NCBI GenBank assembly: GCA_022825235.1
Contig: JAJDYI010000018.1
Location: 1-58,927, forward strand
Length of the DNA: 58,927 nucleotides
Reading direction: 5' to 3'
DNA from: Alphaproteobacteria bacterium
Lineage (GTDB): Bacteria > Pseudomonadota > Alphaproteobacteria > TMED109
The notes under the pieces were generated by a model, which was given only the letters and a program-made list of their open reading frames with translations, had not been told where the DNA came from and did no database searches. Positions 23,462-46,634 of the stretch are shown here, in pieces. Every line of letters starts with the position of its first letter. The stretch's first letter is position 1. Made by a program: the position numbers and the translations under genes.

Positions 23462-25873
23462 CTAACGCCGTTGTTTCCATCGTGCCCAAAAACCCGTGGA
23501 ACCCGTCGCCGCACCGTCCGTACCGCCCGCATCGATCCGCATGAGCAGCGGGGGCAGGATGAAGAAATCGGCGAAGAGCGCCAGCGCGATCACGAGCGCC
23601 GTGAGCCTGCCCATGCTCGAGTTGAGCTCGAAGCTGGAGAGGCTGATCACGAGGAAGCCCGCCACGAGCACGATGGAGGTGGTGAGCAGGGCGTTGCCCA
23701 CGGTGCGGAAGGCCACGCGTACCGCATCCGGCACGGCATGGCCGAGCTCGCGCCGGGCCCGCTGGTACTTGCTCAGGAAGTGCACCGTGTCGTCGACCAC
23801 GATGCCCAGCGTCATGGCCGTCACCATCGAGAGCGACACTCCCACCTGGCCGACCGTCAGCCCCCAGATGCCGAAGCCCAGCGCGCCGGGCACCAGGTTC
23901 GGGACCAGGCTCGTGAAGCCCAGCCGCAGCGACCGCAGCGCGAAGATCAGGACGAAGGAGATGCCGACGAGGGCGAGGGTGGTGCCGAGGAGCATCCCAA
24001 CGATGTTCCGCCGGCCGAGGTTCGCGAACATCAGCGTGGTGCCGGCACTCTCCGGCCGGGCGATGTGGGGCGCATGGTCCGAAAGCCACAGCATCGCCCG
24101 TCGATCGAGATCGATCACTTCGTTCGACGACAGCGTCTGCGTCGCTGCGATCATGCGGGTAGCCGACCGGTCCGGCGCGATCTGGTTGTTGAGATCGAGA
24201 CCGGCGGGGACCGACAGCTCGTAGAGCAGCAGGTACTGCGCAGCCAGCTCCTGGCTGTCGGGCAGGCGGTACTCGGCCGGATCGTCCCCGTGCATGCTCA
24301 TGTTGAGGCGCCGGAAGGTATCGGTGATGACGTTGACGTGGATCGACTCGGGCTGTTCCCCGTACCACGCGGCGAACGCTGCGAGGTCATCGAGGTAGGC
24401 GGGACCGGTGATCCCTCCCGGCTCGCGCGATGCCAGGGAGTACTCCATGGCATACAGGCCGGTGAGGTTCTCGACGATGAAGTCCGCGTCCTGACGAAAC
24501 TCGACGCTCTCGTCGAAGTAGTGGAGGAAGACGTCGTTCAGCTCGTTGCGGGAGATTGACGCGACCAGCGCCACCACCACCACGCCCGACCCCAGGAGCA
24601 ATGTCCGGCGACGGCGGATGACGAACTCCCCGAGCGCGATCATCGCTGCGTCGCGGCGTCGCCGGGTCGCGGGCACCCGGATGGGAAGCAGCGACAGCAA
24701 CGCCGGCAGGAAGGTCACCGAGAAGATGAACGAAGCGCCGACCCCGAACGCCACGAAAGTGCCCAGGTGGCGGAACGGCGGGGCTTCGGAGAAGTGCATG
24801 CTCAAGAAGCCAAGCGAGGTGGTCAGGCTCGCGAGGAACACCGGCTGGAGGTTCACCCGCAGCGCTTCGATGATCGCTTCCTGCTTGCGCGCGTCGGTTC
24901 GGGCGCGCGAGGGAGAGTCTTCGCTGTGCTGGTTCCCGGGCGGGCGGGACGCATCGCCCTGCAGGCATTGCACGAGGGTCGAAAAGACATGCACGCAGCT
25001 CGCGATGGCGACCGTCAGCACGACGATCGGCGCGATGGCGGACACTGACGTCATCGGGAGTCCGACCCAGCCGCCGAGGCCCACGGATGCCATGATCGAC
25101 AGTGCGACCACGAGCATGATGGCGAAGGTTCCGCTGACCCCCCCCGTCAGCAGCACGAGCATCAGCATCATCGCGACGAAGCTCGCCGGCACCAGGATCT
25201 TGAGATCGCTCAGCGACACTTCCATGAAGGCCTGGTTGAAGATCACCTGACCGGTGATCCGCACGTCGATGCCGGGGAAGCGATCGCGAGCCCCGCTGGC
25301 GAGCCGGTCCGCGGCCTCGGCTACCCGGGCCCCTTCGAGCATCTCGTCCTCGCCGGGCAGCTGGACGACGACATTGACGCCGCTGACCCGGCCGTCGCGG
25401 GCGAAGAGGTTTCCCGCAAGGCGCGGCTCGGCGAGGGCGATCGCGCGAACTCGGGAACGTTCCTCGTCGTCCGCGAGGGCTGGTTCGCCCACCAGATCGC
25501 GGATCAGCAGGTCGTCGCCGTCGGCCGTGGCGTGCTGGAAGTTGACAAGCGAGTCGACCCGCGACGCGTACGGAAGCTCCCAGGACTGCCCGGTGAGCCA
25601 GGCAGCGGCTTCGAGCGACAGCGCCGAGGTCGCGTCGTGGTCGTCAGGGACTATGGCGAACAGGACGTTGTCGTTCGTCCCGTACGTGTTGTCCATTGCC
25701 TCGTACGCGAGAAGCTGGGGGTTGTCCTCGTCGAAGTAGATGAGGTAGTCCGCCGAGAACCTGAGAAAGATCGTGCCGCTTGCCGCGGCGCAGGCCACGA
25801 CCACCGTCGCGGCGATGATCGGCCACCGCCACGCGATGACCCAGCCGCCAATCCGCGACTCGAGCGCTTCCAT
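23462..25873 (-). CDS. RND/MMPL superfamily exporter
   Basis: An 803-residue inner-membrane transporter of the MMPL-like branch (COG1033 type, including hopanoid exporter HpnN). One helix at the N-terminus precedes a large periplasmic domain. Five helices follow (about 215-390), then the same topology repeats. The second TM bundle holds MTLGIVVDDTVHFLSKYQRA, whose two Asp residues carry the proton pathway. The ATG giving MEALESRIGGWVIAWRW is chosen over a TTG nine bases upstream. It shares distinctive blocks with the second exporter at 27937 (LAAQYLLLYELS, DLNNQI, RSATRM). Substrate probably a lipid, by family. Confidence 0.85.
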   Translation of the reverse strand: MEALESRIGGWVIAWRWPIIAATVVVACAAASGTIFLRFSADYLIYFDEDNPQLLAYEAMDNTYGTNDNVLFAIVPDDHDATSALSLEAAAWLTGQSWELPYASRVDSLVNFQHATADGDDLLIRDLVGEPALADDEERSRVRAIALAEPRLAGNLFARDGRVSGVNVVVQLPGEDEMLEGARVAEAADRLASGARDRFPGIDVRITGQVIFNQAFMEVSLSDLKILVPASFVAMMLMLVLLTGGVSGTFAIMLVVALSIMASVGLGGWVGLPMTSVSAIAPIVVLTVAIASCVHVFSTLVQCLQGDASRPPGNQHSEDSPSRARTDARKQEAIIEALRVNLQPVFLASLTTSLGFLSMHFSEAPPFRHLGTFVAFGVGASFIFSVTFLPALLSLLPIRVPATRRRRDAAMIALGEFVIRRRRTLLLGSGVVVVALVASISRNELNDVFLHYFDESVEFRQDADFIVENLTGLYAMEYSLASREPGGITGPAYLDDLAAFAAWYGEQPESIHVNVITDTFRRLNMSMHGDDPAEYRLPDSQELAAQYLLLYELSVPAGLDLNNQIAPDRSATRMIAATQTLSSNEVIDLDRRAMLWLSDHAPHIARPESAGTTLMFANLGRRNIVGMLLGTTLALVGISFVLIFALRSLRLGFTSLVPNLVPGALGFGIWGLTVGQVGVSLSMVTAMTLGIVVDDTVHFLSKYQRARRELGHAVPDAVRVAFRTVGNALLTTSIVLVAGFLVISLSSFELNSSMGRLTALVIALALFADFFILPPLLMRIDAGGTDGAATGSTGFWARWKQRR

Positions 25874-26195
25874 GGCCTTCAAGGCTTACCCGGCCCTTCG
25901 TGGTGCCGATCGTGCAAGCGTGCCCGGCCGTCCGGCCCTTCGCTCAGCTTCGGGAACCTGCGTGGAAGATGGCCGATCCAGTAGCCCATGCTCGCCCCAC
26001 GTTCCGCGCAGTCAGACAGGGATACCCGGCGCCTTTCCGTGATCCAATCGGCGCCACGACGAGCGGGTCATGCCTTGGCCGCGCCGCCGGCGGGCGGATT
26101 CCTCTCAGACCCTGACCAGAATAGGCGGAAAGCCGGGTGGGGATCAGGTCGCGAGGAGAAACGCCGACGTTGACCTGAGCGGCGACTCCATTGGT
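25874..26195. other. intergenic region
   Basis: About 320 bases between two genes on the minus strand. No gene or clear terminator found. Confidence 0.35.
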
Positions 26196-27086
26196 TCAAG
26201 CGGGCGGCAGGTGCTCCTGGAACCAGGCGACGGTCTCCCGCATGACCTCGCCGAAGGCCGGCTCCGAGTACACCTCGTAGTGGCCGTAACCCTCCAGCAC
26301 GACCAGCTTCTTGGGCTCCCCGGCTTTCTCATAGAGCAGCCGGGATTCCTCGGGCGGCACGAGGCGGTCGTCGTCGGTTGTGATGAACAGGACCGGGCGC
26401 GGCGCGATCCGGTCCACCACCCATTCGGGATGAAAGCCCAGGGTCTCGTCGACGTACTCGAGAGGGAGGGTGTTGAGCGCGGACGGAACGTTGCGGCGGG
26501 CGGCCGCCGCGAGCTCGGCCGACTGCCGGTCGGGCAGCAGGATCGCATTGCGATCGACGAATTCCGATTCCCCGTCCAGCGTGCGCTTGAGCCGGTCTGC
26601 CGCGGAGCGTTCGAGCAGGTCGAACCACTCATCGGGCCGCCGGACGCTCCGCATCCAGCGCTCTCCGTGGCCGATGCCGACGACACTCACGACGCATCGG
26701 ACCCGCCGGTCGACGGCGCCGGTCCAGACCACCGTCGCCCCGCCATAGCTTGTGCCGTAGATCCCGAGCCGGGCATCGTCCACCGCCGCCTGCGCACCGA
26801 GGAAGGTGAGCGCGGCCTGGACGTCCGTGACCCGGCTGTACGGGGCAAGCCGCGTGCGCGGCCCCTCGCTTTCGCCCCAGCCCTTGTAGTCGAACGTGAG
26901 GACCACGTAGCCGGCCTCGACCAGCACGCGGGCGTTGTCCGGCAGATAGAGGTCCTTCACCCCCGTGTAGCCGTGGCAGAGCACGATGCCGGCTCGCCGT
27001 TCGCCCGCTTGCAGGCTGTCCGGTGCGTACAGGTCGCCGACCATCCTGCAGCCCTCGGAATGGAAGGTGACGGGGGTCACGTTCAT
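26196..27086 (-). CDS. alpha/beta hydrolase
   Basis: A 296-residue alpha/beta-fold hydrolase. The oxyanion strand is IVLCHGYTGVKD, the nucleophile elbow GIYGTSYGGATVV with Ser in GTSYGG, the acid strand VLFITTDDDRLVPP and the catalytic His in EGYGHYEVY. The cap region is short and helical. An ideal AAGGAGGG lies five bases before the ATG. It resembles X-Pro dipeptidyl-peptidase/acyl-hydrolase-like enzymes of unknown substrate. Same strand as the RND exporter 320 bases downstream, so co-transcription is possible. Confidence 0.85.
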   Translation of the reverse strand: MNVTPVTFHSEGCRMVGDLYAPDSLQAGERRAGIVLCHGYTGVKDLYLPDNARVLVEAGYVVLTFDYKGWGESEGPRTRLAPYSRVTDVQAALTFLGAQAAVDDARLGIYGTSYGGATVVWTGAVDRRVRCVVSVVGIGHGERWMRSVRRPDEWFDLLERSAADRLKRTLDGESEFVDRNAILLPDRQSAELAAAARRNVPSALNTLPLEYVDETLGFHPEWVVDRIAPRPVLFITTDDDRLVPPEESRLLYEKAGEPKKLVVLEGYGHYEVYSEPAFGEVMRETVAWFQEHLPPA

Positions 27087-27341
27087 ACGGGCCCTCCTTG
27101 CACAGTCCTGCCGGGAGGGCAGGATAGGCCGACCGCCTAGTTGTAATCTCGGTCGTACGGGACGATCGAGAGATTTCCGGACGCTCCGACAACGAAGTGT
27201 TATGCCCATCCAAAGCCTGTTTCGAACCCGGCAGTCCTTGGCCGAATCAACGGCGCGATTGCCGCTGATTCCTGCTGACGCTGGACACTGGTAGAGTCCG
27301 TTCGCGTCGGCATCAGGGAGACTCGGATCGCTCTCTATTCA

Positions 27342-27704
27342 GTGGATTCGCAACGCTATGTCGACATCATTCCACATGGTGGGAGCTTCGAGCTGTGGCG
27401 TTCGCGGCTGACCAGCGAACAGTTCGATGCCACCTGCAACGAACTTCGCAACATGACCGACGGAATCGAAGTTCCCACGGCCGGATGGATGCCCGGGAAC
27501 AGCTGGATCGGAACACCCTGGGAACCGATTTACACCTACGCCTGCCGGGGCAGCCGGGAGGCGTCGGGCTACTGCTTTGAGTCGTTCGTTTGGGGCATCC
27601 TGCTTGAGCAATCGGATACCTGGGGCTTCGGACGATACGAGAGGTACGGAGTACCAATACGGAGCATGACGTATTTCCAACTGGACAATCCGCAATCCCG
27701 ATGA
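27342..27704 (+). CDS. hypothetical protein, coding-like
   Basis: About 120 residues with strong coding character (YVDIIPHGGSFELWRSRLTS, WMPGNSWIGTPWEPIY, WGFGRYERYGVPI). No signal peptide or known motif. The indicated GTG is only the first usable start; the frame is open upstream through 27291 and RIALYS just before it also reads as protein, so the true N-terminus may be longer with an unusual start, or the gene may have lost its beginning. I do not recognise the family. It lies 232 bases ahead of the second RND exporter on the same strand. Confidence 0.5.
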   Translation: MDSQRYVDIIPHGGSFELWRSRLTSEQFDATCNELRNMTDGIEVPTAGWMPGNSWIGTPWEPIYTYACRGSREASGYCFESFVWGILLEQSDTWGFGRYERYGVPIRSMTYFQLDNPQSR

Positions 27705-27936
27705 TCGGACGGCGGACTTCCTGTCTATTTCCGTGTGCCGTTGAAACGGAACTGCTGGTCGGGGACAACGCCGAACTCGGGGCTGTATCTTGCCCGCATG
27801 GTCTCAACTTCTGAAGCTTCGCGGCCAAGTTCACGATGGTGATGTCCACCCGTAGCGGGTTCTTCAGCGCGTCTGCAGAGGCCCGACAAATGAGCACAAG
27901 AAAAAGCACCGAACCACGAGGGAAGGCCCACAGGAC

Positions 27937-30240
27937 ATGACATCCAGGTTCAAGATCAGTTTTTTCGATCTGGTAGTGGATCGATACTTCTGGACGATGG
28001 CCGCCTCTTTCGTGGTGATCGCGGTGCTCGCCGCGGGAGCGCAGCACCTCGTTACCGTCAAAGTAGGCATCCGAAATCACTTCAGTGAAAATGATCCGCT
28101 CTTGGTCCAACTGGAGCAATTCGAAGAGACCTACGCGGTGTCAGACAGTGTGCTCGTCATTGTCGCCCCGCCAGACGACACTGTCTTCACCCGCGAGGCG
28201 CTCATCGCGATTGATCAGCTGACTGAGGTGTTGTGGCGAACGCCCTATGCCGTCCGTGTCGATTCGATAACCAATTACTTGCACACCGAGGGAGCGGACG
28301 ACAGCCTGATTGTCGGGCAGCTGGTCGACGATGCGGCTTTGTTGGACGAAGCGGAAATCGACCGCATTCGAGAGATTGCGCTCACCGCGCAGGAAACGGC
28401 CGGACGCCTTGTTTCGCGCGACGGTCGCCTGGCCGGACTGATCGTGAGCCTGGCTCTCCCCGATGAGGGAAGGGAACAGACAAGAATCGAAGTGGTTGAC
28501 GACCTTTACGGGTTCGTCAATGCACAGCGCGCGGCCAACCCTGATATCGAATATCACCTCTACGGTGAACTCTTGTTGAATCGAGCGGTTCGTGATGCAC
28601 TGAATGACGATACATCGATTTTGGCACCAATTGCGTTTGCGATGATGGTTCTGACGGCCATCGTGTTACTGCGTTCGGTTTGGAGCGTTTGCGGAATTCT
28701 AGCGATGCTGATCGCCGTGATGGCATCGAGTTTCGGGTTTGCCGGCTGGGCCGGAATAAAGTTCTACGCAGAAAGCGGTGCCGCCCTATTCGTTCTGATG
28801 GCAGTCGCCACCGCACACTCCGTCCACCTAATCCAGGGAATGATGGATGGGATGCTCCGTGGAATGGAACGTACAGCCGCAATTGTCCATTCCCTGCAAA
28901 TAAATGCCCGACCGATATTCCTCACCTCGATCACAACAATGATCGGTTTTCTGAGCCTGAATTTTTCGGAAATGCCCCCATTTCGAGTGATGGGAAATAT
29001 CGTTGCGTTTGGTGCCATGTGCGCATTTGTTTACTCGGTCACGCTGTTACCCGCACTGTTGGCGGTGATGCCCGTGCGGGTAAAGGTCAAACCGAAACAA
29101 GGAATGGAATTTTCCAAGACATTGGGGAATTTCGTTGTTTCCAACAGCACCTTGTTGCTTTGGACTTTTGCCATACTGACTATGGTGAGTGCCATTGGCG
29201 TCTCGAGAATCAATCTGGATGACAACAATAATGCCAAGCTGCTTGACGAAAGCTACGAGCTGCGCCGATCCGGGGATTTCATAAACGAGAACTTTTCCGG
29301 GCTGGATACCTTTGAGTTTTCACTGAGTTCCGGAGTTGAAGGAGGGATCACTGACATAGCGTACCTGCGTCAGGTGGATTCGTTTGCTGATTGGCTTCGC
29401 GAGCAGCCCGGGGTTTCCCATGTCACCTCGATTGCCGATGTCATGAAGCGACTTAATCGGAATCTGCACGATGACGCAAACGACTCCTATGTCCTGCCGG
29501 AAAACTCCGACCTGGCCGCGCAATACCTGGTGCTGTACGAGTTCTCTCTACCGGTTGGCCGTGATCTGAACAATCTCATCAACTTTGAACGTTCGGCCAC
29601 TCGCATGACCGTTGTGATCGAGGGAATGTCGGTCAAAGAGCAAATTGAGCTGGACAATCACGCCTCTGCCTGGCTGCAGGAAAATGCACCGCAAATCCAG
29701 GCTGGAGCGACCGGCGTTACCATTGTCGGCGCGTACTCGGTGATGAGAAACATCGTGAACATGTTAATCGGTACTTTCATTGCGATGTCGATCGTCTCAC
29801 TGCTTTTGATTGTTGCATTCAAAAGCCTTCGTTTCGGACTTCTGAGTTTGGTGCCCAATTTCCTTCCGGCAATCATTGCTATGGGGGCCTGGGGTTACGC
29901 CGTGGGAACCGTTAGTATTGCAGCTTCAATCGTTACCGCTGTGGCATTTGCTATCGTCGTCGATGACACCATCCATCTCCTTTCAAAGTACCTGAATTCA
30001 CGCGCAGAGGGTAAATCACCTGCTGAGGCCATCGTGCCAACCTTCAAACTCGTTGGAAGACCGCTGCTAAGCACCACGCTGATTTTTGCACTGGCATTTT
30101 TTGTCTTTGGTACGTCGGGGCTCGCGACCAATCAGACACTTGGACTGCTGGTCGGAATGACAGTCACCATTGCACTCGTTGCCGATTTTCTCTTGTTCCC
30201 ACCGCTTCTGCTGGCACTCGACAAGGCAAAACAACGGTAG
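27937..30240 (+). CDS. RND/MMPL superfamily exporter, lower-GC paralogue
   Basis: A 767-residue inner-membrane proton-driven exporter with the same two-bundle topology as the gene at 23462 (N-terminal helix 17-40, periplasmic domain, five helices at about 225-370, then the repeat with helices at about 615-760). ATAHSVHLIQGMMDGM and AFAIVVDDTIHLLSKYLNS mark the two proton-relay helices. By family (HpnN, the sterol exporter BstA of Methylococcus) lipid export is plausible. Codon use and GC are visibly lower than in the left part of the window, so it was probably acquired. It converges on the GPP34-P450 gene and may act with the triterpenoid genes. Confidence 0.85.
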   Translation: MTSRFKISFFDLVVDRYFWTMAASFVVIAVLAAGAQHLVTVKVGIRNHFSENDPLLVQLEQFEETYAVSDSVLVIVAPPDDTVFTREALIAIDQLTEVLWRTPYAVRVDSITNYLHTEGADDSLIVGQLVDDAALLDEAEIDRIREIALTAQETAGRLVSRDGRLAGLIVSLALPDEGREQTRIEVVDDLYGFVNAQRAANPDIEYHLYGELLLNRAVRDALNDDTSILAPIAFAMMVLTAIVLLRSVWSVCGILAMLIAVMASSFGFAGWAGIKFYAESGAALFVLMAVATAHSVHLIQGMMDGMLRGMERTAAIVHSLQINARPIFLTSITTMIGFLSLNFSEMPPFRVMGNIVAFGAMCAFVYSVTLLPALLAVMPVRVKVKPKQGMEFSKTLGNFVVSNSTLLLWTFAILTMVSAIGVSRINLDDNNNAKLLDESYELRRSGDFINENFSGLDTFEFSLSSGVEGGITDIAYLRQVDSFADWLREQPGVSHVTSIADVMKRLNRNLHDDANDSYVLPENSDLAAQYLVLYEFSLPVGRDLNNLINFERSATRMTVVIEGMSVKEQIELDNHASAWLQENAPQIQAGATGVTIVGAYSVMRNIVNMLIGTFIAMSIVSLLLIVAFKSLRFGLLSLVPNFLPAIIAMGAWGYAVGTVSIAASIVTAVAFAIVVDDTIHLLSKYLNSRAEGKSPAEAIVPTFKLVGRPLLSTTLIFALAFFVFGTSGLATNQTLGLLVGMTVTIALVADFLLFPPLLLALDKAKQR

Positions 30241-30886
30241 GCGCTTAGCAATGATCCGTTCTGACCTTCTGTCCCCAGGATCCTCGTCGCGTACTGTCAG
30301 CGCTTGAGTGGGCCAACGAATGCCGTGGGGTGCATTTCGACGCCGCGACGCCGTGTATTCGTCAGGTGGACGTAGGGATCGGTGCTGTTGGGCCTGCAGC
30401 TGCCGATCGGGCTTGGAGCATCGTTTCCAAGTTTCGTGGCGCCGTCTCGCAGCCGGCGAACAGTTCGTCTTTCTTGTATTTCGTGAACTGAATGGGCCGT
30501 ATATCGGGGACTGATGCACCCCTTGCAGCAGCAGTGGGTGTACGGAAGATGGCCAATCCTTGCCCGGAACCTTCGGCGACCGCCCTGACACCAAGGCCGG
30601 ATCACTGCCTGACGGTACTCTGCGGGACACGTCTGCCCCAACCTCCAGGGTGGAAGCCAAGGGTGGCAGCAAGACGTTCCGCAGGGAAGGCGTTTCACGT
30701 ACCTACATTGCCTCATTCCATCCGTCTCACGGCCCATTGTTCCCCATGGCAACGTCTGCCCTCGGATGGCGAGGTTCCCGGCCAGCGCCGCTCATCGGTG
30801 ATTGTCCGGAGACCGTGGCGATATCGACGACTGGCCGTCGAACTCACGTCCGTTTTGCTGGTCGGGCCTGCGGGATGGCGAACACT
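30241..30886. other. intergenic region between convergent genes
   Basis: About 650 bases. Several open frames on both strands, none with family-like sequence. It may contain a decayed gene; nothing identifiable. Confidence 0.35.
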
Positions 30887-32905
30887 TCAGGTTGGAAGTT
30901 CGTGCAACTGATTTGCGATGCGGAGTTTGAGTTTTTTCGTAACTGACAATGCCGGAAAAGGGTCGATCTTCAGGTTGTAGTCACTGGGCAACGGCGCGAA
31001 CTCGAAATAGTACGCAATCATCAACATGGTGACTGCCAGCTGCAAATGCACCCATGCCTGTCCTGCACAGGTGTGGGTATCCAGGCCGTACGGAGCGTAT
31101 CCGGGACCTTTATGTTCATTGCGCGGTGAAAGATAGCGGTCAATATCAAATTTGTATGGGTCTGGAAAGCAATCACTCATGTAATGTGTCGCGGTTTGCA
31201 CAATGTACAGCCGTTCCCTGAGCGGCAGTGAATAATTTTCCACAACGCAAGAATTCGCAACATTACGAAGATGCGTACTGATAATCGGATACAGTCGCAG
31301 GCATTCCATAAGAAAACGTCGGGTAACGTCATAATTCTCCGGAGAAAACTTGTCGTTGCCCGGGTCGCCGTCATCGAACATCGCGTTTGCTTCTTCACGA
31401 ATTCTTGCGGTAAGTTGAGGCTGCCTGGCCATTTCGAAAAGAACGAATCCCAACATGTCTCCGAGATAAATGCTCTGAAACACAGGTGTCACGGCCAGCA
31501 TGAACAGCAGGTTTTGCTCCGGTATGAACTGCGGGTCGTTGCCGTGTAAGGCGATCAGTTCGTCTGCCAGTTCCTGGACAACTCCGGTGCGCTGATTGGG
31601 TAGATGGTTCTGCTCGATCCGTCGCATGAGTTCCGGGTAAGCCCGAAAGCGGCGTTTCATGGCAGGCGTGTGTACCAGGAATTTTGGTAGAAAATCCGCG
31701 ACATAACAGATGATCGCCCTTTCATTCCATCTGACCAGATCTTCAAACAGGTCTTGCGCATCCGTACTGACAAGAATTTGAAACATCTGGAAACTGGTCA
31801 TCAGCCGGCTGTCTTGCTGTACATTCAGCTCGGAACCTGCTTGCCACTTTTGGTCGATCATGAATTGGCGACTCAATCGGATTATCTCGTCTCGCCTTTC
31901 ATGGAATCTTGCTTTTGAGTAGACTTTCCCCATAAGCTTTCGCATTCGAAAATGGTCGGCACCATCGAGCGATGGAAGGAGGTTGTTTGCCCCACAGACC
32001 ATTTCCATTTCGCGGAAAAAATTCCCGGATGTCAAAAACTCTCGGGAATTTCGGCGTACCCAGTGATTGATGCTGGGTCCTGCCAGGAATGTTCGTGGCT
32101 TCTGATACGGTAGGCCGATTTGGAAAACCGGACCATATTGTTCGGCAAGGTTCCCAAAGAAAGCCGGCATGTTGCGATCCCATAAATGGCGATTGGCCAG
32201 CAAGCTCTTCAGCGGAATCTTCGGAATCGGCTTTGTCGTGGGCGAGCGCTGCAATGTAGGTGCAACGGAAACTTCCTTCACGGCTGCAGAAATCACCCGA
32301 TTAATCAGTTCCATTTTGCAAACGAGTTCGACTCTCTTTTCCTCTTCCTCTTCCAGATCGAACATAAATCTGACGATATCGCACGCGTTCAAAAGACCGA
32401 TTAGCAGGGAATCCCTCGGGTTTGGAATAACATCAGTGAAAATCACCTCCTCAATTCTTGACCTGATGTACTTTCCCACTGTGTCGCCTTTGGGATATTG
32501 CTGCATGTCCGCATGCCACGGACAGTGATTCGCCGTATAAAACTCACCTTCATGGCGTGTCAGGATTTCCAGCTCAACCAGATGTTTCAGTGTGGCATCG
32601 ATGATGTATTCCGCATGAACTGTAAGCCGTTCAATCCAGTATCGCGGTGCTTTCGGATCGGGATCAGAAGCGATCTCTGTCAGGCATAAATCCAGAACTG
32701 GCTCGCCTGTTGCGGTTGAATCCAGAAGAAAAAGCGATTCCTCGTCGGTATCGATGCGTCCCTTCAGGGAGAGGTCAGCCAGAACTGCGCCGATGGTGGC
32801 ACAATTCAAGGTCCAGCCCTCCACTTGGTGGAAGTAGCCGGTTTGCTCGTTGAGAATCGTCATGATGAATTCTTGCGGGATATTCAGCGGGCGCTTCGAA
32901 ATCAT
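30887..32905 (-). CDS. GPP34 (GOLPH3-like) domain fused to cytochrome P450
   Basis: A 672-residue two-domain protein. Residues about 8-205 match GPP34, the fold of Golgi phosphoprotein 3: IPQEFIMTIL, AVLADLSLKGRIDTDEES, then TGEPVLDLCLTEI, YWIERL and NPRDSLLIGLLNACDIVRFM. Eukaryotic members bind phosphatidylinositol-4-phosphate at membranes. Residues about 225-672 are a cytochrome P450: ExxR helix as FLMECLRLYP (E534, R537) and heme loop YAPYGLDTHTCAG with the thiolate Cys at 613. The expected I-helix acid-alcohol pair (AGxDT) is replaced by AVTPVFQSIYLGDM, suggesting unusual oxygen chemistry. No redox partner adjoins. The ATG lacks a strong ribosome site. GC is low. A role in oxidising a membrane triterpenoid is inferred from the neighbourhood. 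Confidence 0.85.
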   Translation of the reverse strand: MISKRPLNIPQEFIMTILNEQTGYFHQVEGWTLNCATIGAVLADLSLKGRIDTDEESLFLLDSTATGEPVLDLCLTEIASDPDPKAPRYWIERLTVHAEYIIDATLKHLVELEILTRHEGEFYTANHCPWHADMQQYPKGDTVGKYIRSRIEEVIFTDVIPNPRDSLLIGLLNACDIVRFMFDLEEEEEKRVELVCKMELINRVISAAVKEVSVAPTLQRSPTTKPIPKIPLKSLLANRHLWDRNMPAFFGNLAEQYGPVFQIGLPYQKPRTFLAGPSINHWVRRNSREFLTSGNFFREMEMVCGANNLLPSLDGADHFRMRKLMGKVYSKARFHERRDEIIRLSRQFMIDQKWQAGSELNVQQDSRLMTSFQMFQILVSTDAQDLFEDLVRWNERAIICYVADFLPKFLVHTPAMKRRFRAYPELMRRIEQNHLPNQRTGVVQELADELIALHGNDPQFIPEQNLLFMLAVTPVFQSIYLGDMLGFVLFEMARQPQLTARIREEANAMFDDGDPGNDKFSPENYDVTRRFLMECLRLYPIISTHLRNVANSCVVENYSLPLRERLYIVQTATHYMSDCFPDPYKFDIDRYLSPRNEHKGPGYAPYGLDTHTCAGQAWVHLQLAVTMLMIAYYFEFAPLPSDYNLKIDPFPALSVTKKLKLRIANQLHELPT

Positions 32906-33033
32906 GTCAACAACACTCCGATCCCCGTGGTGTCATTCTCTCTCGTGATGCCAATCCCGCTCGCTTCCGGTGCCCTGTTTTCCATCTCTCTACAAGGACT
33001 ACTGGCCGTTTGCTGCAGCGGACCGGGCGGGCA

Positions 33034-33940: not shown

Positions 33941-34210
33941 GTTCGGCACGTCCAGATTTGCGGGGGCAGGCAAAGTCCACGGGACACGGACACGCTCACG
34001 CCAACCGCTGCAGATGCCACGGAGCTGCCCGGCAAGCGGATCGAGTACCGAGTGCTCGTCGCCAACAACTGGCTTTTCCGGCGCCTCGGGACTTGAACTT
34101 CTCTCTCGATATCCGCGTTCCGGATCCGAATTACGGCTGTTCCGGGTGACGGGTCGGGAAACGCCTTGCCCGCTTCGCTGCGGCCGCAGCCCGCGGCCAA
34201 GGGTTTTCCG

Positions 34211-37200
34211 ATGAGCGACACCGCTTCCCGACGGTACGACGTCGCCATCGTCGGCGGTGGTCCGGTCGGCAGCTTGTGCGCGCTCGCTCACGCGCGCAAG
34301 GGCGCCCGCGTGGCTCTCCTCGAAGCGAATCCCAAGGCTTCCGAGCGGATGGCGGGCGAATGGCTGCATCCGCCGGCCGTCAGGATCTTGCAGGATGTCG
34401 GAATCGCCCTCGATACGTTCCCGGACGGCACCGAAGGCAAGGGATTCGTGGTGTTCCCGGAAGACGGCTCGGAACCGATAGCCCTTCCTTATATGGGCGG
34501 ATCCCGCGGCCTGGCGTGCGAGCACGTCTTGCTCGTTGCGAGGTTGCATCAGGCTGTCGAGAACGAGGCGGATATCGACTTTCTTTCCCGTGCGCGCGTA
34601 ACCGCAGTTGGGGACGAGCAGATTGCCTTTACCCTCGACGGCGTTGATCGATCCTTGACTGCCGGGCGGATTATCGGCGCCGATGGCCGGGCCTCGATCG
34701 TGCGTCGATCTTTGGGGTTGTCGACCAGCCCGCAGCTTTGTTCGCTGATGTTGGGGGTCGCCCTGAGAGGCGTAAGCCTGCCGCTGGAAGGCTACGGGCA
34801 CGTGGTGATGGGCGGTCCGGGTCCGGTCCTCATTTACCGTCCGGCGGAAGACACTGTCCGGGTCATGGTCGATGTCCCGCTTGACCGCTGGACCCCCCGG
34901 GACCGGGTCGGCTTCCTGTCGGAAGCCTATTCCGGCGTGTTGCCGGAACCTCTCGGGCACGCGTTCGTCGATGCCTTGCAGATGGGAGATTTCAAGGCCG
35001 CGACCAATCAGTTGAGGCCCCTTGTCTCGTACGGGAACTCGCGGCGCGTGCTGATCGGCGACGCGGCCGGGCATTATCACCCCTTGACGGCGGTGGGGAT
35101 GACCCTCGGTTTCGGCGAAGCGCTCGCGCTCGCCGAGGGCAGGGAATTTCGGGATTTCGTCGCTAGGCGCTATCGAGCGACCAGCAGTCCGGAACTCCTC
35201 GCGATGGGACTCTACGAGGTGTTTGCGGATCATCGGACGGAGGCGGTGGCAGTCAGACAGGCGATCTACCGGGGTTGGCGGGCAAGCACCGCGTATCGCG
35301 ACCACACCACCCGAATACTTGCCTGCGAAGACCGTTCCCCGGTCCAGTTCGGGCTCGCATTTTGCTCGACCATGGTCCGCACGGTTGCCGGGGAAATCTC
35401 GCAATCCGACCGCTCGTTCGCTTCGCGCCAGGCCCGCGACATCCTTCTTGCCCTCGTTGTTCGTCTCTGGTGGCTGTTGCGTGGTGTCCTGCAGCTGTAC
35501 AAGGCGAAAAGCTCGGGCCACGGGCAGGACCCGCCCGCCCGGGACACGTTGGCCCGCGCATTCCTGACTTCCATGCCGTCGAGAGCCGGAGAACCGCGCA
35601 CCGCCCGCCCCAGCGAAATGAAATCGCCCGATGCCGGTCCGGCGCTAGAGGATGCAGCGGCACGCCTTCTCGATCTCCAGAACGCGGACGGCAGCTGGGA
35701 AGGCGAGATGGTCTGGTGTCCCATGCTCACGGCGCAGTATGCACTGCTTCACCACATAATCGGCGAGCCGCTTGATCCGGGAAGGCGGCGCCGGGTGCTG
35801 CGCCAGTTCGAAAGGACCCGTCTCCAGGGAGGCGCATGGGGCCTGCACGAGCATGCGCCGCCAAATCTGTTCGTCACCGCACTCGTTTATGTCGCAGCGC
35901 GGCTGCTCGGCGCACAGCCGGATGACCCCTTGATCGTCCCGTCCCGGCGGTTCATGCAGGCCGAGGGAATCCTTGGCATTCCGAGCTGGGGCAAGTTCTG
36001 GCTGGCGCTCCTTAATCTCTATGACTGGAACGGCGTGAACGCCGTGCTGCCGGAATTGTGGAGCCTGCCGCGGAGGATACCGCTGCATCCCTCCAACTGG
36101 TACTGCCATACCCGACTCATTTACATGGCGATGGCTTCGATTTATGCCCGCCGGTTCCAGGTGCCCGTCACACCGTTGATCGCTGCGTTGCGGGAAGAGC
36201 TTTATCCGCAAGGCTTTGCCAAGGCCGATTTTTCCGCTGCCCGGAACCGGCTTCGGGATGCCGACCTGTTCGCGAGGCCCTCTGTCTGGCTCAGGGCCGG
36301 ATACAAATTTGCGCGGCTGGTTGAGCGGTTCCACAGCAAACGCCTGCGCACACGGTGCATGGACGGAATTCTCGGGCAGATCAGATGGGAGCTGCAGACC
36401 ACCAGCCATACGAGCATTTCGCCGGTCAGCGGCATCCTCAACATTTTGTCACTGTGGCTGCACGATCCGGACGATGCCGATTGCCGGCAGGCGCTATCGA
36501 AAGTGGATGGCTGGATCTGGGAAGACGAAGACGATGGCGCCCGAGTCACAGGAGCAAGAAGCGCTTCGTGGGATACCGGGTTCGCGCTGCAGGCTCTGGC
36601 CGCTGTGCCTGAGACAAACCGGGTTCGGGACGCGCTCCGGCAGGGCGCAGATTTTCTGCTCGGCGAACAGATCAAGACCAGCTTTGAGCGATTTCATGAT
36701 GCCTATCGCGCTGACCCCAGGGGTGGCTGGTGCTTCGCCGGCGGGTGGCATGGCTGGCCGGTCAGCGATTGCACGGCAGAGGCGGTGCTCGGCCTCGTCG
36801 CTGTCCACGGAAATAACGCAGATTCGTCTGTGCTTGCCGAAGCAACCGAGTTCATGTTGCGAAGCCAGAACCGCGACGGCGGCTTCGGCAGTTATGAGGC
36901 CAGACGTTCGACGATGGGTCTGGAGTGGTTAAATCCTGCCGAGATGTTTGGCGAATCGATGACCGAGCATTCTTTTGTCGAATGTACTGCCTCCTGCGTC
37001 GCGGCGCTGTCTGCCTGCCGGGATCGCTTTCCTGAAATCGGTGACAGGCCAGCGGTTGCCGACTCCATTGCCCGGGGCGCCTTGTGGTTGCGCCGGAACC
37101 AGATGGCCGATGGCAGTTGGCGTGGCGTATGGGGGGTCCAGTACATCTATGGCACGCTTTTCGGCATCAGGGGCCTCGTTTCGGCCCGGGCCGGTCCTGG

Positions 37201-37576
37201 TGATCCGGCACTACACGCGGCTTGCCGCTGGCTCCTGGAGCGCCAGCGGCCGGACGGGGGATGGGGTGAACACCACAGCGGCTGCCTGAGCGGTCGCTAC
37301 GTACCGCATCAGGAAAGCCAGGTCACACAGACGGCGTGGGCACTGATCGCACTCCTTGAGGCGGGCGAAACAGACTGGGCTGCGATTTCACGGGGTGCGG
37401 GCTTCCTGCTTGCTGTGCAGGAAGCAGACGGGACTTGGCCCAAGCAGGACATGGCTGGCGTTTTTTTTCGTACCGCACTTCTGGATTATGTGCTGTACCG
37501 CCAGTATTTCCCCCTGCACGCACTTTCTCTCTACGAGCAGCGTCGCCGAAAGCGACTAGCTGTGATCTCTCAATAG
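34211..37576 (+). CDS. squalene epoxidase-type flavoprotein fused to oxidosqualene (sterol-type) cyclase
   Basis: A 1121-residue bifunctional protein. Residues 1-~440 are a squalene-monooxygenase-like flavoprotein: FAD motif VAIVGGGPVGSL, GADG at 156-159, then GDAAGHYHPLTAVGMTLGFG (G283, H290), with PVLIYRPAEDTVRVMVDVP between. Residues ~475-1121 are a triterpene cyclase with QW repeats (QNADGSW at 490, QNRDGGF at 886, others later). Catalytic VSDCTAE (D853, C854) and HSFVECTAS (C925) match oxidosqualene cyclases, whose Asp is hydrogen-bonded by two Cys; hopene cyclases have DxDD. IPSWGKFWLALLNLYDWNG and HPSNWYCHTRLIYM also fit sterol-type cyclases. Together it would convert squalene via 2,3-oxidosqualene to a lanosterol- or cycloartenol-like product. 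The stop codon lies in the terminal repeat of the adjoining IS element. Confidence 0.93.
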   Translation: MSDTASRRYDVAIVGGGPVGSLCALAHARKGARVALLEANPKASERMAGEWLHPPAVRILQDVGIALDTFPDGTEGKGFVVFPEDGSEPIALPYMGGSRGLACEHVLLVARLHQAVENEADIDFLSRARVTAVGDEQIAFTLDGVDRSLTAGRIIGADGRASIVRRSLGLSTSPQLCSLMLGVALRGVSLPLEGYGHVVMGGPGPVLIYRPAEDTVRVMVDVPLDRWTPRDRVGFLSEAYSGVLPEPLGHAFVDALQMGDFKAATNQLRPLVSYGNSRRVLIGDAAGHYHPLTAVGMTLGFGEALALAEGREFRDFVARRYRATSSPELLAMGLYEVFADHRTEAVAVRQAIYRGWRASTAYRDHTTRILACEDRSPVQFGLAFCSTMVRTVAGEISQSDRSFASRQARDILLALVVRLWWLLRGVLQLYKAKSSGHGQDPPARDTLARAFLTSMPSRAGEPRTARPSEMKSPDAGPALEDAAARLLDLQNADGSWEGEMVWCPMLTAQYALLHHIIGEPLDPGRRRRVLRQFERTRLQGGAWGLHEHAPPNLFVTALVYVAARLLGAQPDDPLIVPSRRFMQAEGILGIPSWGKFWLALLNLYDWNGVNAVLPELWSLPRRIPLHPSNWYCHTRLIYMAMASIYARRFQVPVTPLIAALREELYPQGFAKADFSAARNRLRDADLFARPSVWLRAGYKFARLVERFHSKRLRTRCMDGILGQIRWELQTTSHTSISPVSGILNILSLWLHDPDDADCRQALSKVDGWIWEDEDDGARVTGARSASWDTGFALQALAAVPETNRVRDALRQGADFLLGEQIKTSFERFHDAYRADPRGGWCFAGGWHGWPVSDCTAEAVLGLVAVHGNNADSSVLAEATEFMLRSQNRDGGFGSYEARRSTMGLEWLNPAEMFGESMTEHSFVECTASCVAALSACRDRFPEIGDRPAVADSIARGALWLRRNQMADGSWRGVWGVQYIYGTLFGIRGLVSARAGPGDPALHAACRWLLERQRPDGGWGEHHSGCLSGRYVPHQESQVTQTAWALIALLEAGETDWAAISRGAGFLLAVQEADGTWPKQDMAGVFFRTALLDYVLYRQYFPLHALSLYEQRRRKRLAVISQ

Positions 37577-38548
37577 GTTGTCCGTCCGGGACTGATCTCG
37601 GAAGCTGATGGGTGACGAAATCTTGTCAGCGAACCGAGAAGCAAGCCCCGGATGAACGTCCACAAGAATGCAAATCTGACGCCGCGCGGTCGAGGCGAGA
37701 TCGTGCGGCGGGTGGTCGACCTGGGGCAGGCCCCGAAGGCCGTGGCCACGGCCCTCGGGGCCTGTGAACGCACCGTGCGCAAGTGGGTCCGGCGCTTCCA
37801 GACCGAGGGTTACGAAGGCCTCCAGGATCGCTCGTCACGGCCCCACACGCTGCGCCGGCGGCGTTGCACCGGCGCGCAGATCGCCGCCCACCTCGGCGTC
37901 TCCATCGCCACCGTCAGCCGGGTCCTGCTTCGCCTCGGGCTCAACCGCCTCAAGGACCTCGACCCGCCCGAGCCGGTGCGTCGCTACGAGCGCCAGCACC
38001 CCGGAGAGCTCATCCACATCGACATCACGAAGCTCGGCCGCTTCGACCGCCCAGGCCACCGCGTCACCGGCGACCGAACCGGCCAAAGCAACTACCGCGA
38101 CGTTGGCTGGGAGTATCTCCACATCTGCATCGACGATCACTCCCGCGTCGCCTTCAGCCAGATCTTGCCGGACGAGAGGAAGCAGAGCGCCACCGCCTTC
38201 CTCAACGCTGCGGTCGCCTACCACCAGAGCCTCGGCGTCGCCGTCACACGTGTCATGATCGACAACGGCGCTTGCTGCAAGGCCCACACCTTCCGCGCCG
38301 CCCGCAAGGCCGTCGGCCTCAAGCACATCCGGACCAGGCCCTACACCCCAAAGACCAACGGAAAGGCCGAACGCTTCATCCGGACCGCCCTGCGCGCGTG
38401 GGCCTACGCCCGCGCCTATCGAACCTCATCCCAACGCGCTCAGCAGCTGCCACAATGGATGCACCGATACAACTGGCACCGACCACATGGCAGCCTGAAG
38501 GCCAATACCCCCATCAGCAGACTCCGTCTCGCATAGGACAACCTATTG
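37571..38548 (+). mobile_element. IS481-family insertion sequence, 978 bp
   Basis: A compact element bounded by perfect 13-bp terminal inverted repeats: CAATAGGTTGTCC at 37571-37583 and its exact complement at 38536-38548. It encodes one DDE transposase. No target-site duplication is evident. The left repeat overlaps the last codons and stop of the triterpene fusion gene, so insertion was at that gene's 3' end. Confidence 0.85.
37652..38536 (+). CDS. IS481-family transposase, slightly shortened
   Basis: A 294-residue DDE transposase. N-terminal helix-turn-helix (RTVRKWVRRFQTEGYEGLQD) is followed by the catalytic core: HIDITKLGRF (first Asp), RVMIDNGACCKAH (second Asp) and PYTPKTNGKAERFIRTALRA (Glu), then HRYNWHRPHGSLKANTPISR, the usual family ending. 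Relatives have about 20 more residues between DRSSRPH and the TGAQIAAHLGVS helix, so an in-frame deletion in the linker between DNA-binding helices is likely. The catalytic triad is intact. The stop lies at the right inverted repeat. Confidence 0.85.
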   Translation: MNVHKNANLTPRGRGEIVRRVVDLGQAPKAVATALGACERTVRKWVRRFQTEGYEGLQDRSSRPHTLRRRRCTGAQIAAHLGVSIATVSRVLLRLGLNRLKDLDPPEPVRRYERQHPGELIHIDITKLGRFDRPGHRVTGDRTGQSNYRDVGWEYLHICIDDHSRVAFSQILPDERKQSATAFLNAAVAYHQSLGVAVTRVMIDNGACCKAHTFRAARKAVGLKHIRTRPYTPKTNGKAERFIRTALRAWAYARAYRTSSQRAQQLPQWMHRYNWHRPHGSLKANTPISRLRLA

Positions 38549-45224: not shown

Positions 45225-45440
45225 ACAGCAGCATCTAGTAATCGCCAGCTTTGCCTCAGTTTCGTCTCGCGCTGCCATATGTCGTCAAACTACATGCAAT
45301 ACAATGATCTGAAGAACTCAGGTGAAACCGATCATACGCCAAACACTCACACAAATTGCCAAACATTTGCGTCTAAGTGCTTCCCAATAGCTTCCCAGTT
45401 CGGTACGCTGGGACCCGCTGACTGTTGTGGAGAGGATCGG

Positions 45441-46634
45441 ATGCCAAGTCGAGTGAGGCTCAACAAACGCTTTGTTGACCGTATCGAGAGTGATGGATCA
45501 GAGCGGATTTACTGGGATCACGAGTTGCCCGGTTTTGGTCTGCGAGTTCGGGCTTCAGGCCGGAAGTACTACATTGCTCAAGTCCGCGCCGGAGGACGTC
45601 AACGGCGCCTGACCATCGGCTCGCATGCCCTCGCCCCGGATGCCGCGCGGAAGGAGGCGATGGCATTTATTTCGGAGCTCCGGAACGGCGGTGGCGATGT
45701 ACGCAAAATCGAGGAAACCCGGGAAGAAGCGACCATCAAAGAACTGAGCGACCGATTTCTGGACGAACACGTGAAGCTGCACTGTAAGCCTGCAACCCAA
45801 CGCGAGTACGGCCGCATTGTACGGTCGTTTGTGGTTCCCAACTTGGGCAGGCGGCGGGTTCCCGAAATCCGCCGGAGCGACATCGCTGCCTTGCATCACA
45901 AATTGCGTGACACGCGCTATCAGGCAAACCGGACGCTCGCGGTGCTGTCCAAAATGTTCAATCTCGCTGAGTTGTGGGGGATGCGCCCGGACGGATCAAA
46001 CCCGTGCCTGCACGTGAAGCGCTACAAGGAGGAACAGCGCGAGCGGTTCCTGAGTGCCGCGGAGTTTCAGCGCCTAGGCCGGGTGCTAGACGAGATTCTC
46101 GAAGACGGATCCGAAACCCGATCGGCGGTAACCGCGATCCGCCTGCTGATGCTGACGGGTTGCCGGTGTGCGGAAATCCAGACGCTGCGGTGGGAGCACG
46201 TCGACCTGGAGGCCGGCGAATTGAAGCTCCCGGATACGAAAACTGGGAGGCGGGCGATTCCGCTGGCTCCGTCTGCCGTGCGGCTGCTGGCTGCTCTGCC
46301 GCGTGACGAGGAAAACCCGTGGGTCATTCCAGGGAGACGGCGGGGCATGCACCTCAATGACCTCCGGCATCCCTGGCACCGCATTCGGACGAGAGCGGGC
46401 CTTCCTGGTGTACGCCTCCATGACCTTCGTCACAGTTTCGCATCCAGGGCTCTTGCTCTTGGTGAAGGGTTGCCGATGATCGGAAAATTGCTTGGCCACA
46501 CCCAGGTGCAAACGACCGCGCGATACGCTCACCTTGCCCGCGACACGATGAAGGTGTCGGCCGCCCGGATCGGCGACAGTATCGACCACGACCTGGAGGC
46601 CGATGGCGAAGTTGCCGGGCAGCCTGGGGCGTGA
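45441..46634 (+). CDS. tyrosine-type site-specific integrase
   Basis: A 397-residue integrase of the P4/DUF4102-type group. N-terminal arm-binding domain (DHELPGFGLRVRASGRKYYI), SAM-like core-binding domain (residues about 100-190), and catalytic domain with Arg in LTGCRCAEI, HDLRHSFASRA (His/Arg), LLGHTQVQTTARYAHL (second His and nucleophile Tyr). All catalytic residues are present, so it should be active. GGAGAGG precedes the ATG. It sits 217 bases inside the tRNA-Lys fragment, the usual place for an island integrase. Its 3' end is repeated 6 kb to the left. Confidence 0.92.
   Translation: MPSRVRLNKRFVDRIESDGSERIYWDHELPGFGLRVRASGRKYYIAQVRAGGRQRRLTIGSHALAPDAARKEAMAFISELRNGGGDVRKIEETREEATIKELSDRFLDEHVKLHCKPATQREYGRIVRSFVVPNLGRRRVPEIRRSDIAALHHKLRDTRYQANRTLAVLSKMFNLAELWGMRPDGSNPCLHVKRYKEEQRERFLSAAEFQRLGRVLDEILEDGSETRSAVTAIRLLMLTGCRCAEIQTLRWEHVDLEAGELKLPDTKTGRRAIPLAPSAVRLLAALPRDEENPWVIPGRRRGMHLNDLRHPWHRIRTRAGLPGVRLHDLRHSFASRALALGEGLPMIGKLLGHTQVQTTARYAHLARDTMKVSAARIGDSIDHDLEADGEVAGQPGA

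What the first reader, a model, noticed from the sequence alone, without database searches (positions are those of the whole stretch)
30887..32905. GPP34 (GOLPH3-like) domain fused to a cytochrome P450
GPP34 binds phosphoinositide at Golgi membranes in eukaryotes, and its bacterial homologues are largely unstudied. Here it forms the N-terminal 200 residues of a P450 next to triterpenoid genes. The GPP34 part could place the P450 on a membrane lipid or present a lipid substrate, a new way of tethering a soluble-type P450.
Basis: partly seen in the sequence, partly recalled or inferred. Interest (0 to 1): 0.88.

Follow-up and report, generated by a model that had tools for sequence, protein, structure and literature searches.

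The report
GOLPH3-domain P450 of sponge-symbiont sterol clusters
The gene really does fuse a bacterial relative of the Golgi protein GOLPH3 to a cytochrome P450; the same fusion recurs in at least 80 genomes from seven or more phyla, most of them recognisably sponge symbionts and usually beside sterol-modifying and lipid-transport genes, so it is probably a membrane-docked sterol or triterpenoid oxidase.

Summary
Window 30887-32905(-) is one 672-aa ORF: GPP34 (PF05719, residues 9-193, E=5e-26) plus a cytochrome P450 (PF00067, E=1e-24) with intact ExxR and haem cysteine. It is no assembly artefact: 80 further full-length copies (46-99% identity) come from at least seven phyla; 66 of the 80 bear bin names of known or likely sponge-metagenome series. 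Structure prediction and search show a true GOLPH3 fold (Z 20.6) and a P450 fold closest to sterol P450s. Of the 80 loci, 66 carry a sterol-type enzyme and 61 an RND transporter. The window neighbours are a fused squalene epoxidase-oxidosqualene cyclase and an MMPL transporter. It is not CYP51: relatives carry a real CYP51 in the same cluster. GOLPH3's PI4P-binding arginines are absent in every copy examined, while a hydrophobic beta-hairpin is kept; the phosphoinositide idea is not supported, and membrane docking without PI4P is the best reading (inferred, untested). Two surprises: the P450 lacks the usual I-helix acid-alcohol pair (invariant Y-x-G-D instead), and the same genome fuses GPP34 to a Rieske domain and to a four-helix membrane domain. 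Sterol clusters and the epoxidase-cyclase fusion were known; I found no report of GPP34-P450.

The parts
30887..32905 (-). GPP34-cytochrome P450 fusion protein, 672 aa (complete ORF)
   Evidence: 80 full-length relatives
32261..32905 (-). GPP34 (GOLPH3-like) domain, residues 1-215; Pfam match 9-193 = 32327-32881
   Evidence: AF2 model of the domain alone, GOLPH3 Z 20.6
32531..32563 (-). hydrophobic beta-hairpin of GPP34 (residues 115-125), equivalent of the membrane-inserting hairpin of GOLPH3 by alignment; F122 and W/Y123 conserved
   Evidence: strands E115-118 and E122-125, conservation, GOLPH3 hairpin role from PMC13408441
32240..32260 (-). short linker, residues 216-222 (lowest pLDDT of the model at 218-222)
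   Evidence: coordinates
30893..32239 (-). cytochrome P450 domain, residues 223-671
31457..31474 (-). I-helix motif S-I-Y-L-G-D (residues 478-483) where most P450s have A/G-G-x-D/E-T; Y480, G482, D483 invariant in 79/79
31295..31306 (-). ExxR motif of helix K (E534-C-L-R537), invariant
   Evidence: coordinates
31061..31099 (-). haem-binding segment YAPYGLDTHTCAG with the axial Cys613 (31067-31069), invariant
   Evidence: coordinates
34166..37576 (+). squalene epoxidase (PF08491/PF01494) fused to an oxidosqualene cyclase (TIGR03463 727 bits, DCTAE at 36767-36781); probable start Met at 34211
27937..30240 (+). MMPL/Patched-type RND transporter, convergent with the fusion gene; low GC like the fusion gene

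Best explanation
The protein is a haem-thiolate enzyme that acts on membrane-dissolved sterols or related triterpenols in sponge-associated bacteria. The N-terminal GPP34 domain replaces the N-terminal membrane anchor of eukaryotic sterol P450s: it docks on the inner leaflet of the cytoplasmic membrane, probably through its hydrophobic beta-hairpin and without the PI4P site, and holds the P450 substrate entrance at the bilayer where the cyclase product, or a sterol brought in by the RND transporter, is dissolved. In the window's organism the substrate is most likely the direct product of the adjacent epoxidase-cyclase (a lanosterol-type triterpenol), because the genome shows no CYP51, no C14-reductase (ERG24) and no SdmA-grade demethylase. 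In other hosts it is a later sterol intermediate or an acquired sterol that is also methylated at C24. The RND protein is taken to move substrate or product. Shown: architecture, folds (predicted), conserved catalytic residues, linkage to sterol genes and transporter, absence of the PI4P arginines. Inferred: membrane docking, substrate class, transport. Unknown: position oxidised and redox partner; the altered I-helix hints at non-standard oxygen activation.
For: GPP34 and P450 identity and folds. Nearest solved P450s by profile: CYP51 1e-32, then taxadiene hydroxylase, CYP120, CYP46A1. Invariant haem machinery in 79-80 sequences. Neighbourhood of 80 loci: KshA-type Rieske oxygenase 49, MMPL 48, FAD oxidase 44, sterol methyltransferase 39, ERG4/ERG24 reductase 13, AcrB-type RND 13, LolA-like 11, epoxidase-cyclase 9, SdmA-like 6, 3b-HSD-like 5; any sterol-type enzyme 66/80, any RND 61/80. 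L051 is a compact cluster MMPL > GPP34-P450 > HSD > SdmA > ERG24 > CYP51 > epoxidase-cyclase > LolA-like; L052 and L054 have cyclase and fusion co-directional, 85 and 198 bp apart. The KshA-type neighbour's best solved structure is 3-ketosteroid 9a-hydroxylase, E 2e-22. Own genome without ERG24, SdmA-grade or CYP51 hits. PI4P arginines lost, hairpin aromatics kept.
Against: No biochemical data. Only 9 of 80 loci have the cyclase next to the fusion, and in a Chloroflexota sample true oxidosqualene cyclase appears in just 2 of about 23 genomes with the fusion, so many hosts do not make sterols de novo by this test; 17 of the 23 have some cyclase, mostly SHC-like, so hopanoids cannot be excluded. 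14 of 80 loci show no sterol-type enzyme within the held flanks. No ferredoxin or reductase was found among the recurrent neighbours. Membrane docking of bacterial GPP34 has not been shown, and its oligomeric state is unknown. pTM 0.71 leaves the relative placing of the two domains uncertain.
Confidence: 0.6

Rival explanations
1. GPP34 is a protein-protein adaptor: like GOLPH3, which binds basic membrane-proximal tails of Golgi enzymes, it clips the P450 to a membrane partner (RND transporter, sterol reductase or a redox partner), forming a sterol metabolon rather than docking on lipid.
For: GOLPH3 binds short basic tails, probably through an acidic face (PMC8421267). The PI4P arginines are lost while other GPP34 positions (R50, D52, D54, W31, P161, P163, R164) are invariant. 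An RND protein is linked in 61/80 loci.
Against: Partners in the neighbourhood vary (MMPL of two clusters, AcrB type or none), whereas GPP34 is conserved. The same genome carries GPP34 fused to modules with no evident common partner (Rieske; four TM helices).
Confidence: 0.2
2. The P450 acts on hopanoids or other membrane lipids, and sterol genes are incidental neighbours.
For: In Chloroflexota 17 of 23 fusion-bearing genomes have a cyclase, mostly at SHC-like scores, against 34 of 327 others (Fisher 2e-11, phylogeny not controlled). A divergent own-genome copy (L014) adjoins an SHC-type cyclase with a DIDD motif.
Against: Sterol methyltransferase with Sterol_MT_C in 39 loci, ERG24 in 13 and KshA-type Rieske in 49 are steroid-type enzymes. 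The window neighbour is an oxidosqualene cyclase, not SHC.
Confidence: 0.15
3. The GPP34 pocket still recognises a specific anionic or inositol lipid, perhaps of the sponge host.
For: GOLPH3 homology; an invariant Trp31 lies two residues from the aligned W81 position; sponge setting.
Against: R90 equivalent is V/I/A/G/M, R171 equivalent is a gap and R174 equivalent is I/V in all 81 P450-fused copies; R90L alone largely abolishes Golgi localisation of GOLPH3 (PMC13408441).
Confidence: 0.08

Closest known systems
GOLPH3 / Vps74 (PF05719)
   Same: Same fold over about 196 of 216 residues (Z 20.6, rmsd 2.7); hydrophobic beta-hairpin at the equivalent place.
   Different: PI4P arginines absent; loops between core helices shorter; fused to a P450; bacterial.
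Streptomyces SCO4440 (GOLPH3-like, PMC12402492)
   Same: Bacterial GPP34 protein.
Sterol P450s: CYP51 (including the Methylococcus CYP51-ferredoxin fusion), CYP46A1, CYP90B1
   Same: P450 fold, tied structural and profile best hits; sterol-pathway genomic setting.
   Different: 16-20% identity; no acid-alcohol pair in the usual I-helix place; GPP34 instead of an N-terminal TM helix; a separate true CYP51 in the same clusters of relatives.
Clusters of steroid genes of sponge symbionts (Kelly 2022, PMC9531527; msb cluster, PMC7074536; SMT clusters, Brown 2023, PMC10070321)
   Same: ERG24, CYP51, epoxidase-cyclase fusion, SMT and HSD/SdmA genes across many phyla with signs of transfer.
   Different: The passages read mention no GPP34 and no second P450; the window's own genome lacks ERG24 and CYP51.
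BstA / HpnN RND lipid transporters (PMC10942540)
   Same: MMPL-family RND protein beside sterol genes.
   Different: BstA model scores far below its cut-off (33.6 against 1400 bits for L070); substrate unknown.

Membership tests
GPP34 / GOLPH3 (PF05719) | Profile score above the Pfam cut-off | tested here: met
   92.4 bits, cut-off 29.1
GPP34 / GOLPH3 (PF05719) | GOLPH3 fold | tested here: met
   predicted model, Z 20.6 to GOLPH3, next unrelated Z 4.2
GPP34 / GOLPH3 (PF05719) | PI4P-binding residues (W81, R90, R171, R174 of GOLPH3) | tested here: not met
   no Arg at the R90, R171 or R174 equivalents in any of 81 P450-fused copies
GPP34 / GOLPH3 (PF05719) | Membrane-inserting hydrophobic beta-hairpin | tested here: inconclusive
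   two strands with conserved F122, W/Y123 and L125 at the equivalent place; insertion itself untested
Cytochrome P450 | P450 fold with axial Cys segment and ExxR | tested here: met
   C613, H611, G615, E534, R537 invariant; fold Z 34-36
Cytochrome P450 | I-helix acid-alcohol pair of typical monooxygenases | tested here: not met
   S-x-Y-L-G-D in place of A/G-G-x-D/E-T, Y480, G482 and D483 in 79/79; register uncertain by one residue
CYP51 sterol 14-demethylase | Sequence membership in CYP51 | tested here: not met
   window copy scores 40 bits against the symbiont CYP51, true CYP51s 770-1015; the cluster's own CYP51 matches Methylococcus CYP51 at 1e-102
Oxidosqualene cyclase (neighbour) | DCTAE motif and OSC profile | tested here: met
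   DCTAE at residues 868-872; TIGR03463 727 bits, best-scoring model but below its curated cut-off of 851
Ircinia-type steroid gene cluster (ERG24-CYP51-LSS) | The three core genes together | tested here: not met
   own genome without ERG24 or CYP51; present beside the fusion in L051, L081, L099
BstA sterol transporter (neighbour MMPL) | NCBIfam BstA equivalog score | not tested
   the window's own MMPL was not scanned with NCBIfam; relatives L070 (33.6 bits, cut-off 1400) and L050 (no hit) fail it

The most novel reading that the evidence does not exclude
GPP34 is a general bacterial membrane-docking cassette for oxidoreductases, and its P450 fusion founds a horizontally spread enzyme family, largely confined to sponge symbionts, with non-canonical P450 chemistry (invariant Y-x-G-D I-helix) that makes some of the unusual sterols credited to sponges.
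Probability: 0.3. Interest if true: 0.9.

Novelty: new variant of a known kind. Interest (0 to 1): 0.72.

Why it matters
It gives the largely unstudied bacterial GPP34 family a concrete biochemical setting, suggests a way of placing a soluble-type P450 at a membrane without a transmembrane helix, and adds an enzyme to symbiont sterol clusters that bear on the origin of sponge sterols and on sterane biomarkers.

Tried and rejected
Assembly artefact: rejected, 80 independent full-length copies. CYP51 identity: rejected. PI4P binding: not supported. Plasmid or phage cargo: no full-length match in 72,556 plasmid or 50,697 phage records. Single fusion origin: unresolved. P450 halves of the two fusion classes are mutually closest (121-201 bits against at most 45 for unfused P450s), a quick GPP34 tree groups them (98 SH-aLRT), but a careful tree without the long rows does not. 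First neighbour clusters built from stop-to-stop frames were largely antisense shadows and were replaced by called genes. Paper search for 'GPP34' returned mainly an unrelated insecticidal protein of the same name. No Rfam element at 30-38 kb and no tRNA in the window.

Full report
OBSERVATION. The stated ORF is real: 30887-32905 on the minus strand, 672 aa. Pfam gives GPP34 over residues 9-193 (E 5.2e-26) and p450 (E 1.3e-24), both well above the curated cut-offs. The full-length AlphaFold2 model (80-sequence alignment) has mean pLDDT 88.5 and pTM 0.71, with the only stretch under pLDDT 50 at residues 218-222, between the domains. Modelled alone, the GPP34 part (pLDDT 92.4, pTM 0.90) matches GOLPH3 at Z 20.6 over 196 residues and Vps74 at about Z 18, with the next unrelated structure at Z 4.2. 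The P450 part matches CYP46A1, CYP120, CYP51, CYP90B1 and BM3-type P450s in a near tie; by sequence profile the best solved relative is the Methylococcus CYP51 (1e-32).

NOT A ONE-OFF. A scan of about 85,000 species genomes found 420 relatives of the query and kept 80; all 80 cover essentially the whole fusion at 46-99% identity. The submitted names place them in Chloroflexota, Pseudomonadota, Gemmatimonadota, Nitrospirota, Latescibacterota, Binatota and Verrucomicrobiota; the tree needs 12 changes of phylum label where 6 would do, and cross-phylum identity is near 50%, which suggests some lateral transfer but does not prove it, since bins can be misassigned and paralogues split groups. The 'jk18x' bin series is named in a paper on Ircinia sponges (the p16x series is not named there); 28 of the 80 loci bear jk18x or p16x names. 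The RHO/COS/CAR/IRC/APA series (24 loci) fits the sponge species of PMC8163846 by abbreviation (inference). SB06xx (10) and MPN/MPM (4) I take for sponge bins from memory. Fourteen titles were not placed. In a sample of 398 genomes of the window's phylum, P450-sized GPP34 frames occurred only in the window's own genome; in 350 genomes of the phylum of a Chloroflexota locus about 23 had them.

NEIGHBOURHOOD. Genes called around the 80 loci were clustered and identified. Counts by locus: KshA-type Rieske oxygenase 49, MMPL 48, FAD amine-oxidase-like 44, sterol methyltransferase 39, ERG4/ERG24 13, AcrB-type RND 13, LolA-like 11, epoxidase-cyclase 9, SdmA-like 6, HSD-like 5; 66 of 80 have at least one sterol-type enzyme and 61 an RND protein. 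The KshA-type protein's best solved match is 3-ketosteroid 9a-hydroxylase; the FAD oxidase's is LkcE. L051 shows the fusion inside a nearly complete sterol cluster with its own CYP51; L081 and L099 carry the fusion beside the same set. So the fusion is not CYP51 but an additional enzyme. In the window, the epoxidase-cyclase carries DCTAE. The residue two before that motif's Asp is Val; from memory this is the lanosterol-synthase state (Ile in cycloartenol synthases), and PMC7074536 uses such a valine for msbE. The window genome has no hit to ERG24, no SdmA-grade hit and no CYP51; it is a 96% complete draft, so a missed gene is possible.

MECHANISM. Human CYP46A1 and CYP51 align to the model from after their N-terminal membrane segment (the TM helix is established knowledge), whereas here GPP34 occupies the N-terminus. 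GOLPH3 approaches membranes with a hydrophobic hairpin and the PI4P residues W81, R90, R171, R174 (PMC13408441). In 81 P450-fused GPP34 copies the R90 position is V/I/A/G/M, the R171 position is a gap and the R174 position is I/V; stand-alone bacterial GPP34s keep an Arg at the R174 position in 35 of 41. The hairpin keeps F122 (74/79), W or Y at 123 (79/79) and L125 (68/79). I therefore infer docking by the hairpin without PI4P. The P450 keeps ExxR and the haem Cys in every copy, but in 79/79 window-type copies Y480, G482 and D483 stand where an acid-alcohol pair is usual; a second class of fusion (L014, L167, L171) exists, with the ordinary motif read in two of them, GGLDT in L014 and VGLDTT in L167. 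This conserved difference suggests unusual oxygen activation or a non-monooxygenase reaction; it is an inference.

EVOLUTION. The fusion gene and the MMPL gene have GC 0.50 and 0.53 against about 0.66 for most of the window, which suggests recent arrival. An IS481-type transposase follows the cyclase at 37652-38536. The P450-fused GPP34s lie among stand-alone GPP34s of the same kinds of genomes; whether the two P450 classes stem from one fusion is unresolved.

KNOWN VERSUS NEW. Symbiont steroid clusters, their transfer, bacterial SMTs and epoxidase-cyclase fusions are published (PMC9531527, PMC10070321, PMC7074536). Bacterial GPP34 was described in Streptomyces as not previously reported in prokaryotes (PMC12402492). 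The library holds no paper on a GPP34-P450 (three hits, all about insects or pesticides). The library is open-access only, so absence there is weak evidence.

LIMITS. No coordinates were available for surface analysis; habitat was judged from bin names; only the best 80 of 420 relatives were seen; gene calls are my own.

Noticed in passing
own genome: L009, L010, L011, L012, L013, L014, L015, L016: Nine GPP34 loci in one 3.85 Mb genome: one stand-alone, three fused to a four-helix His-bearing membrane domain, one fused to a Rieske domain, four fused to P450 (window, L014, and two cut by contig ends).
   Followed up: partly
L010:1524-4292, L011:469-3171, L013:7603-11019: GPP34-membrane-domain proteins are followed by a multihaem cytochrome c (Pfam-scanned in L010), and in L013 also by a Tll0287-like protein; a redox module I could not name. 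Similar GPP34-membrane fusions occur in L161-L165.
   Followed up: partly
window 27000-33000: Island of low GC (about 50-58%) holding the MMPL and fusion genes in a window of about 66% GC.
   Followed up: partly
window 37652-38536 and 45279-46634: IS481-type transposase directly after the cyclase gene and a phage-type integrase about 7 kb further.
   Followed up: no
window 23462-25882: A second MMPL transporter with a sterol-sensing-domain match, also present in L049.
   Followed up: no
L053:110-4943: Fusion gene and epoxidase-cyclase both broken by frame changes in this small contig (assembly error or decay not distinguished).
   Followed up: no
80 loci, cluster 2 (e.g. L085:12027-13385): LkcE-like FAD oxidase linked to the fusion in 44 loci; function in sterol metabolism unknown.
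   Followed up: partly
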